Notes under the pieces: generated by a model
The model's input: only the letters and a program-made list of their open reading frames with translations
What the model was told of the DNA's origin: nothing
Databases searched by the model: none
Assembly: GCA_019055375.1 (NCBI GenBank)
Contig: JAHQIW010000044.1
Location: 124,001 to 188,000 of the forward strand
DNA: 64,000 bases
Reading direction: 5' to 3'
Source of the DNA: Parelaphostrongylus tenuis
Lineage: Eukaryota; Nematoda; Chromadorea; Rhabditida; Metastrongylidae
Shown here: in pieces, positions 23,040-23,432 of the stretch
How positions within the stretch are numbered: the first letter of the stretch is position 1
Layout of the letters: each line of letters starts with the position of its first letter
Position numbers and translations under genes: made by a program

Positions 23040-23432
23040 TTTGAGCTAACTTGTCATGTGGTTTGCTAAATGGGCTCTTGTACACGCCGATAGACGTGTT
23101 TCGACCATACAGTCCCGTCAGTCGGGCAGAACCCTTCGTCTGTTAGTCTTTCAGCCAATAATTTTAGTCAGATGGAAATTTCATTTGACATACAGTTTAA
23201 ATCATTCATCGACGCTGCCTTTATATAGAGAGTGGAAGCCCTCAAGCGGGTTCTCTAAAAGACCAAAAGAAGAAGGGTTTTGCCCGACTGACGAGGCTGT
23301 AAGGTCGAAACACGTGTATCGGGCTGTATAAGAGCCCTTTACCAGACCGCATGACCTATTGGCTCAAATAAAAGTAAAGAGAATTGTTTAAATTTGAGCG
23401 TGGTCTTAACGAAGCACTCGAAATAAAAACAT
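23040..23432 (+). mobile_element. Ribozyme-bearing short element E3 (best-preserved)
   Basis: An inverted ribozyme (about 23086-23127, minus strand, with its downstream segment from about 23048) is separated by about 150 bp from a forward ribozyme at 23273-23339. A TATATAG box lies at 23223-23229. The forward downstream body (CCAGACCGCATGAC, GGCTCAAATAA, GAGCGTGGTCTTAACGAAGC) runs to about 23432. It has no ORF. Its left edge lies about 10 bp from the CHAF1B fragment. Confidence 0.82.
23273..23339 (+). ncRNA. Hammerhead ribozyme motif with palindromic stem III
   Basis: All core elements are present and ordered: AAGGG outer stem (23273-23277), TTTT loop, GCCCGA (23282-23287), CTGACGA (23288-23294), GGC-loop-GTC stem II (23295-23306), GAAA (23307-23310), CACGTG (23311-23316), TA (23317-23318), TCGGGC (23319-23324) pairing with GCCCGA, then CCCTT (23335-23339) closing the outer stem. 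Stem III is a loopless perfect palindrome, so a monomer would be weak while two RNAs could pair through it. The predicted cut follows the GTA at 23316-23318. Confidence 0.8.

What the first reader, a model, noticed from the sequence alone, without database searches (positions are those of the whole stretch)
23040..23432. A dispersed family of short, non-coding elements carrying hammerhead ribozymes (E1-E6)
Six related elements (15045-15420, 17530-17710, 23040-23432, 25838-26180, 56955-57450, 60892-61222) share a body, a TATA-like box and a motif that folds as a type I hammerhead: CTGANGA, stem II, GAAA, CACGTG, TA, closing stem. Nine motif copies are visible on both strands. They encode no protein, so they look like non-autonomous ribozyme retroelements (retrozyme-like) or stripped Penelope-like terminal repeats. 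The known families are PLE hammerheads and retrozymes; I am not aware of this nematode family being described, but cannot search.
Basis: partly seen in the sequence, partly recalled or inferred. Interest (0 to 1): 0.9.

Follow-up and report, generated by a model that had tools for sequence, protein, structure and literature searches.

The report
Ribozyme-bearing parasitic DNA in a nematode
A worm genome carries hundreds of short protein-less mobile elements, each built around a self-cutting hammerhead RNA motif, and the scars they leave at their insertion sites match those left by Penelope-type retroelements of the same genome, which points to the machine that copies them.

Summary
The strict core occurs 470 times in the 481.5-Mb genome, the reversed control never. 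Stems I and II covary in 53 copies not chosen by motif (62 double-changed cells, 23.7 shuffled, 0/500). Rfam finds no hammerhead in the window at its cut-offs; on 20 other loci Hammerhead_1 hits two copies just under its cut-off (31.6 and 31.0 bits of 34). The unit is a 310-nt non-coding monomer like animal retrozymes. New is the insertion anatomy: 41 of 70 loci are head-to-head, none tail-to-tail; outer ends fall mainly into two classes about 40 nt apart, one of each in 20 of 25 elements; repeats of 8-16 bp flank 7 of 29 (0.5 expected). Both head-to-head Penelope (PLE) pairs whose ends I read show one long and one short end and a 12-bp duplication. Best reading: retrozyme-like elements inserted in trans by PLE enzymes. 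Self-cleavage, RNA circles and the partner PLE are not shown.

The parts
23041..23427 (+). Element E3 (the reported one): inverted left arm, then right arm, head to head (left limit by eye)
   Evidence: Inverted arms 23069-23154 / 23255-23340, 85% complementary; profile hits 23094-23159 -, 23175-23318 +, 23320-23427 +
23269..23332 (+). Hammerhead, right arm of E3: stem I GCCCGA/TCGGGC, CTGACGA, stem II GGC-TGTAAG-GTC, GAAA, CACGTG, TA; predicted cleavage after 23318
   Evidence: Model without window copies: 86.0 bits, E 4.2e-26; MFE fold of 23273-23340 forms stems I and II, -22.6 kcal/mol, z -2.06
23077..23140 (-). Hammerhead of the inverted left arm of E3 (core CTGACGG, last A changed to G)
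   Evidence: 68.3 bits, E 3.1e-20
15027..15412 (.). Element E1, head to head, beyond the 3' end of a LINE fragment on the - strand
   Evidence: Profile hits; hammerheads 15125-15188 - (E 3.5e-15) and 15346-15408 + (E 3.3e-10)
17528..17699 (-). Element E2, a single arm with long tail (m124)
   Evidence: Profile hit m1-124; hammerhead 17636-17696 -, E 4.2e-09
25828..26167 (.). Element E4: inverted long tail (m125), then body, hammerhead, short tail (by eye)
   Evidence: Profile hits; hammerhead 26062-26126 +, E 4.3e-14
25817..25827 (.). Left target-site duplication of E4, AAGCTCAAAAG
   Evidence: The only two occurrences in the window are 25817-25827 and 26168-26178
26168..26178 (.). Right target-site duplication of E4, AAGCTCAAAAG
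56953..57445 (.). Element E5, head to head (right limit by eye)
   Evidence: Profile hits 56953-57047 - and 57087-57371 +; hammerhead 57323-57385 +, E 3e-07; degenerate copy 57038-57100 -, E 0.024
60892..61219 (.). Element E6: inverted arm with one ribozyme and a short left end (by eye), then a direct tail with a long right end (m111); inserted into a LINE fragment
   Evidence: Hammerhead 60939-61003 -, E 6e-23; profile hits; LINE homology resumes on both sides, 60880 and 61240
36587..40848 (+). For comparison: coding Penelope-like element, partial tandem (RT + GIY-YIG), flanked by the 9-bp duplication AATAACGGT
   Evidence: Pfam RVT_1 and GIY-YIG; duplication at 36587 and 40840
37524..37559 (+). 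Minimal hammerhead-like motif of the PLE pLTR (first copy)
   Evidence: Exact match; assigned by eye; no Rfam match at E<=10
40628..40663 (+). Minimal hammerhead-like motif of the PLE pLTR (second copy)
   Evidence: Exact match; assigned by eye

Best explanation
E1-E6 belong to a dispersed family of non-coding, non-autonomous retroelements whose unit is a 310-nt RNA of animal-retrozyme type, running from one hammerhead cleavage site to the next. Most likely cycle: (1) a copy is transcribed (inferred); (2) the type I hammerhead cuts the RNA after the UA, probably as a dimer or with protein help, because helix III is only the palindrome ACACGUGU (inferred); (3) the RT/GIY-YIG protein of a Penelope-like element binds this RNA in trans and cuts both strands of a target (inferred, as published for the anole PLE in vitro); (4) reverse transcription starts at one of two sites in the RNA, about m62-81 or m104-125, both in or near loops of predicted hairpins (the ends are shown, the priming is inferred); (5) copies started from the two DNA strands meet head to head with variable 5' junctions, and the gap is filled to leave an 8-16-bp duplication (the structure is shown, the order of steps is inferred).
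For: Hammerhead: nine window hits with an out-of-sample family model; covariation in stems I and II; Rfam RF00163 31.6 and 31.0 bits on two arms of L010, gathering score 34. Family: 470 strict cores, control 0. PLE-type anatomy: 41 of 70 loci head-to-head, 0 tail-to-tail (39 of 68 without L005, which is E3, and L069, a near copy of L052); of 87 outer ends 24 lie at m62-81, 54 at m104-125, one each at m51 and m94, 7 at m142-169; of 25 elements with both ends 20 have one short and one long (12.3 expected from the end frequencies, p 0.0016; in 4 of the 20 the long end is one of the m142-169 group); identical stretches of 8 or more bases near both ends in 7 of 29 elements, 0.5 expected from 812 mismatched pairs (list). 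Same anatomy in coding PLEs here: of four head-to-head pairs among the 80 scored hits I read two, C4578 and C4162; each has one long and one short end (61 and 42 nt apart, counted on the printed letters) and a 12-bp duplication; the window PLE has a 9-bp duplication. PLE literature agrees: inverted pLTRs, a tail on one of them, 8-10-bp duplications (PMC3846280, section 6, and passages); tail = stretch between two RT start sites, both DNA strands cut and extended (PMC11167929, parts 1-2 of 4). Arms of one element are more alike (median 0.70, 36 pairs) than arms of different elements (0.61).
Against: No coding PLE with E-type ends or hammerhead was found; only the 80 best of 26,832 PLE candidates were scored, and by eye their contigs share only C30 and C866 with the 100 listed motifs, 15 and 158 kb apart. 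The PLE pLTR motif is of a different, minimal type. Directly adjoining head-to-tail units, usual for retrozymes, occur in 4 of 70 loci (L003, L011, L056, L058). 5' boundaries are spread over the monomer: 9 of 117 lie at m1-9 (3.4 expected if even), and three of these nine merely follow a truncated ribozyme, so copies do not as a rule begin at the cut. RNAalifold on the 53-copy alignment predicted no pairs; minimum-energy folds gave little over control (12 of 54 vs 7.05; 13 of 70 vs 11.05, where single controls reached 21). 22 of 29 elements show no clear duplication, and in L070, one of the 7, the shared 8-mer is a palindrome between flanks that are inverted copies. In the PLE of the anole, ribozyme cleavage was not needed for insertion in vitro (PMC11167929).
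Confidence: 0.75

Rival explanations
1. Stripped Penelope elements: deletion derivatives of a coding PLE that keep only its inverted pLTRs, with no separate RNA-circle stage.
For: Anatomy equals that of the two PLE pairs read. PLEs are reported to leave solo pLTRs and to carry foreign sequence between pLTRs (PMC3846280, passages).
Against: The E hammerhead has the long bulged stem I of the canonical class, unlike the minimal motif in the PLEs seen here. By eye no ORF start follows the ribozyme. Adjoining head-to-tail 310-nt units exist.
Confidence: 0.3
2. The sequence is the 3' end of a LINE (endonuclease plus RT; RTE-like is a recalled label), and the short copies are its SINEs.
For: L006 and L025 are 83% alike over 1575 bp from the RT reading frame through the hammerhead; the LINE has RVT_1 (85.3 bits) and Exo_endo_phos_2 just under its cut-off (26.3 of 27.4).
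Against: 17 of 70 loci have LINE pieces nearby at scattered places, but only these 2 have the coding end joined to the element in this way, and they are one lineage. The two other copies in the window lose homology where the element begins. Head-to-head structure and two end classes are not explained.
Confidence: 0.06
3. Inverted-repeat DNA transposon (MITE); the ribozyme-like motif is incidental.
For: Inverted arms and duplications; a reading frame weakly like DDE_Tnp_1_7 (piggyBac-like, a recalled label) lies next to E2.
Against: Ends are of two unequal classes, duplication length varies from 8 to 16 bp, junctions in the middle vary, and stems I/II covary within one arm.
Confidence: 0.04
4. 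Decayed relics without function today: a true hammerhead family, but extinct. (Not exclusive of the best explanation; it concerns the present state.)
For: Copies differ widely (median identity about 0.61 between arms of different elements); several window copies have core changes.
Against: 470 copies keep the strict core.
Confidence: 0.35

Closest known systems
Animal (non-LTR) retrozymes (Cervera and de la Pena 2020, PMC7229834, parts 1-4 of 6 read)
   Same: Non-coding monomer of about 170-400 nt with a type I hammerhead, low GC, self-paired RNA fold, weak palindromic helix III as described for the axolotl; PLEs live in the same genome
   Different: Mostly dispersed head-to-head or single copies instead of tandem arrays; two defined end classes and target duplications that point to the PLE machine; 'nematod' does not occur in that paper's main text
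Penelope-like elements with inverted pLTRs and tail (Adineta vaga, PMC3846280; anole Poseidon, PMC11167929)
   Same: Head-to-head inverted terminal repeats, a tail on one end, duplications of about 8-12 bp, a hammerhead near the end (the last in the anole PLE and the PLEs here)
   Different: No RT/GIY-YIG gene; hammerhead with long bulged stem I instead of the minimal kind
Minimal dimeric PLE hammerheads (Lunse 2017; Cervera 2014): seen only as citations, texts not held
   Same: Type I, helix III nearly absent, dimer action expected (recalled)
   Different: E-type has a 6-bp inner stem I, a bulge and an outer helix
Schistosome and amphibian hammerhead satellites (known here from PMC7229834 and recall)
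   Same: Type I hammerhead in short repeats
   Different: Those are satellite-like tandem repeats

Membership tests
Type I hammerhead ribozyme | Core CUGANGA ... GAAA ... UH with stem I open and stem II closed | tested here: met
   E3 right arm and 470 genome copies keep it exactly; nine window copies belong to the family, several with core changes
Type I hammerhead ribozyme | Helices supported by covariation | tested here: met
   82.3% of cells paired vs 73.7% shuffled, 62 double changes vs 23.7, 0/500 each; slid controls score at most 0.098 vs 0.336; but pairs with any double change 9 vs 7.1, reached by 58/500. RNAalifold alone predicted none
Type I hammerhead ribozyme | Recognised by Rfam RF00163 at its curated threshold | tested here: inconclusive
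   No hit at gathering in the window; 17.4 bits for E1; 31.6 and 31.0 of 34 in L010, the only Hammerhead_1 hits at E<=10 in 20 loci, plus Hammerhead_3 at 20.8 of 48.5 in L012
Type I hammerhead ribozyme | RNA self-cleavage | not testable with these tools
   Needs in vitro transcription
Animal retrozyme | Non-coding monomer of 150-450 nt, GC under 50% | tested here: met
   310 nt, 44.2% GC; longest stop-to-stop inside E1-E6 48-93 aa
Animal retrozyme | Head-to-tail tandem copies | tested here: inconclusive
   Directly adjoining ribozyme units in 4 of 70 loci (L003, L011, L056, L058); most others head-to-head or single
Animal retrozyme | Circular RNA in tissue | not testable with these tools
   No reads available
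Penelope-like element | RT + GIY-YIG open reading frame | tested here: not met
   No long reading frame in E1-E6; PLE fragments near 7 of 70 loci at scattered positions
Penelope-like insertion type | Inverted (head-to-head) terminal repeats | tested here: met
   41 of 70, 0 tail-to-tail, pieces joined up to 120 nt apart
Penelope-like insertion type | Extra tail of some tens of nt on one of the two ends | tested here: met
   Two main end classes, medians m72.5 and m114; mixed in 20 of 25 elements; same in 2 of 2 PLE pairs read
Penelope-like insertion type | Target duplication of about 8-12 bp | tested here: met
   7 of 29 with 8 or more bases (8, 8, 9, 9, 10, 11, 16), 0.5 expected; coding PLEs 9, 12 and 12 bp
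LINE (RTE-like) / its SINE | Element is the 3' end of coding copies | tested here: not met
   2 of 70 loci, one lineage

The most novel reading that the evidence does not exclude
This family shows how animal retrozymes move: a self-cleaving RNA that codes for nothing carries two start sites for a Penelope enzyme, which inserts it head to head from both DNA strands at once. It would turn the published guess 'PLEs are a strong candidate' into a structural demonstration, and give a compact RNA (310 nt, two hairpins) to define what a PLE enzyme needs in its template.
Probability: 0.6. Interest if true: 0.78.

Novelty: new variant of a known kind. Interest (0 to 1): 0.66.

Why it matters
Animal retrozymes are known as RNAs, but which enzyme inserts them is open; Cervera and de la Pena name PLEs as a strong candidate (PMC7229834). 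Here a retrozyme-type element carries the PLE insertion signature (head-to-head arms, two end classes, duplications) beside coding PLEs with the same signature in the same genome. It makes the question testable with a defined RNA and a defined protein. I saw no description of such a family in nematodes in the search listings and abstract openings (40 of 59 listed); most papers of subscription journals are not held, so this is no proof of absence.

Tried and rejected
LINE origin: looked strong in L006/L025, rejected after 70 loci. DNA transposon: considered because of the inverted arms and the transposase-like frame beside E2, rejected on unequal ends. 'Copies start at the cleavage site', suggested by L020: not general. 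Autonomous partner next to tandem L011: only degenerate PLE pieces in mixed orientation. Text pattern for hammerheads in the window: not above chance. MFE folding and RNAalifold: little or no support (RNAalifold on the tails also gave nothing). Blast self-comparison for inverted arms missed known ones and was replaced by a local aligner. A relaxed count of copies in the genome and a count of the PLE-type motif could not be made (tool busy). Rfam on PLE pieces: no hammerhead. Rows: L069 (near copy of L052) and L005 (is E3) were left out of the 5'-boundary, tail and monomer pair counts, but kept in the 70-locus and 87-end counts; A1 holds 53 distinct of 54 unselected copies; the second model uses 39 of these 53 (all 7 window copies and 7 truncated or badly aligned ones left out by eye). 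The 70 loci are the 30 cut plus 40 of the other 70 places it listed; 30 listed and 370 unlisted copies were not read. The 29 elements of the duplication test are the 25 with both tails plus E3-E6 with ends set partly by eye.

Full report
What was checked. Rfam at its own cut-offs finds no hammerhead in the window, and with permissive settings on 14500-27000 only a 17.4-bit Hammerhead_1 match in E1, E 6.8. A loose text pattern gives 6 matches where 3.25 are expected. So the window alone does not settle it; the genome does. The window lies in an assembly of 481.5 Mb, and the strict core with free loop II occurs 470 times on both strands, against 0 for the reversed pattern.

The ribozyme. I read 70 loci: 30 cut and 40 more of the 100 places it listed. 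A profile of the repeating unit finds 222 pieces in them and in the window. Besides the 70 motifs chosen by pattern it gives 54 further hammerhead copies that were not chosen, many of them partner arms; 53 are distinct. On these the hammerhead structure (stem I six pairs, stem II three, stem III two) has 82.3% of cells paired against 73.7% after shuffling and 62 double-changed cells against 23.7 (0 of 500 shuffles each), and a covariation score of 0.336 against at most 0.098 when partners are slid; the number of pairs with any double change, 9, is not unusual (58 of 500). Shuffles do not correct for relatedness; slides keep it. Stem I changes between GCCCGA/TCGGGC and GTGCAA/TTGCAC types; stem II between GGC/GCC, GTC/GAC and GATC/GATC types. 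A model from 39 copies without any window sequence finds nine motifs in the window, eight with E at most 3e-7, the ninth (57038-57100 -) with 0.024, and nothing else up to E 1. Rfam's own Hammerhead_1 model scores 31.6 and 31.0 bits on two arms of L010, just under its cut-off of 34; these are its only hits at E up to 10 in the 20 loci scanned, beside a weak Hammerhead_3 match in L012. Against this, RNAalifold predicts no pair on the same alignment, and the minimum-energy fold contains both stems in 12 of 54 unselected copies (7.05, at most 10, when 3' parts are swapped) and 13 of 70 selected ones (11.05, at most 21). E3 itself folds into stems I and II with a bulged long stem I. Helix III is the palindrome ACACGUGU, which can form a short stem closed by the tetraloop ACGU or an eight-base-pair contact between two molecules (read from sequence); one axolotl retrozyme hammerhead is described with one base pair and a palindromic tetraloop, and the axolotl ribozymes cut much better as dimers (PMC7229834).

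The unit. From cleavage site to cleavage site the monomer is 310 nt, 44.2% GC; E1-E6 hold no stop-to-stop stretch above 93 aa. Its consensus folds better than shuffles (-96.3 kcal/mol, z -3.64). In the predicted circular fold, stem II (17 double changes, 3.3 shuffled) and a hairpin m95-102/m144-151 (15 against 6.2) clearly covary; other helices are weaker or no better than shuffles, and m227-231/m240-244 is worse.

The insertion anatomy. With pieces joined up to 120 nt apart, 41 of 70 loci are head to head, 28 have pieces on one strand with a single ribozyme, 1 is a direct tandem, none is tail to tail; without L005 (which is E3) and L069 (near copy of L052) it is 39 of 68. Directly adjoining head-to-tail units occur in L003, L011, L056 and L058. 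Of 87 outer ends, 24 lie at m62-81, 54 at m104-125, one at m51, one at m94 and seven at m142-169; medians of the two classes 72.5 and 114. Of 25 elements with both ends, 15 are long-left/short-right, 5 the reverse, 4 long-long and 1 short-short: 20 mixed, 12.3 expected from the frequencies, p 0.0016; in 4 of the 20 the long end belongs to the m142-169 group. Identical stretches of 8 or more bases near both ends occur in 7 of 29 elements; 812 mismatched pairs predict 0.5. They are 8 (L013, L070), 9 (L046, L048), 10 (L068), 11 (E4, AAGCTCAAAAG) and 16 bases (L002); the one in L070 is a palindrome between flanks that are inverted copies and may not count. The 5' junctions are spread over the monomer; 9 of 117 lie at m1-9, 3.4 expected if even. 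Arms of one element resemble each other more (median 0.70, 36 pairs) than arms of different elements (0.61).

The Penelope elements next door. The window holds a coding PLE (RT and GIY-YIG) in partial tandem with a 9-bp duplication and a minimal hammerhead-like motif in each pLTR (assigned by eye, Rfam gives no match). Copies identical in the protein part searched lie elsewhere in the genome, which suggests recent movement. Four head-to-head PLE pairs appear among the 80 scored hits of 26,832 candidates; I read the ends of two, C4578 and C4162, and both have one long and one short end, 61 and 42 nt apart, and a 12-bp duplication. This is the anatomy of the E elements, whose two end classes lie about 40 nt apart. 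It is also the published PLE anatomy: inverted pLTRs, a 31-bp tail on one of them, duplications of 8-10 bp in a rotifer (PMC3846280, section 6 and passages), and an in vitro explanation, two RT start sites whose spacing is the tail, with both strands cut and extended (PMC11167929, parts 1 and 2 of 4). That paper also found that ribozyme cleavage is not needed for insertion in vitro.

What it is. The simplest reading is a retrozyme-type RNA that PLE enzymes insert in trans. Shown: the family, the covarying ribozyme, the end classes, the duplications, the likeness to local PLEs. Inferred: transcription, cleavage, circles, the enzyme. Not found: a coding PLE with these very ends. The rival 'stripped PLE' differs mainly in history, and I give it real weight. 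A LINE with endonuclease and RT domains carries the element at its 3' end in one lineage (L006/L025), most likely an old chimera.

Against the finding's novelty. Retrozymes and PLE hammerheads are known, and PLEs have been named as likely movers of retrozymes (PMC7229834). What I have not seen, in listings and abstract openings of the searches and in the parts read, is a retrozyme with PLE-type ends, or such a family in nematodes. That the host is a strongylid nematode is inferred from the PLE protein's best named full-length relatives, Ancylostoma, Necator and Haemonchus at about 60-62% identity.

Noticed in passing
window 36587-40848: Coding Penelope-like element in partial tandem with 9-bp duplication and two minimal hammerhead-like motifs; copies with identical protein elsewhere in the genome.
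   Followed up: partly
window 4039-5263: Second, diverged PLE fragment (RT and start of GIY-YIG), 70-83% alike in DNA to the first.
   Followed up: no
window 58658-62887 and 50844-52060: LINE fragments (RTE-like, recalled label); the first is interrupted by E6, and parts of the two are 91-97% inverted copies of each other.
   Followed up: partly
L006 / L031 and L025 / L032: A lineage of LINE copies (endonuclease + RT) whose 3' end is joined to the hammerhead element body, perhaps an old chimera by template switching.
   Followed up: partly
window 17677-18624: Reading frames weakly like DDE_Tnp_1_7 (piggyBac-like, recalled label) just beside E2, under Pfam's cut-off.
   Followed up: no
window 28208-32487: Large imperfect palindrome of over 4 kb (nested inverted arms) with a tRNA match at 30847-30918 on the - strand near its centre.
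   Followed up: no
L070 about 2910-3580: The flanks of this element are inverted copies of each other for at least some 30 bases beyond its ends, so the palindrome may extend into host DNA.
   Followed up: no
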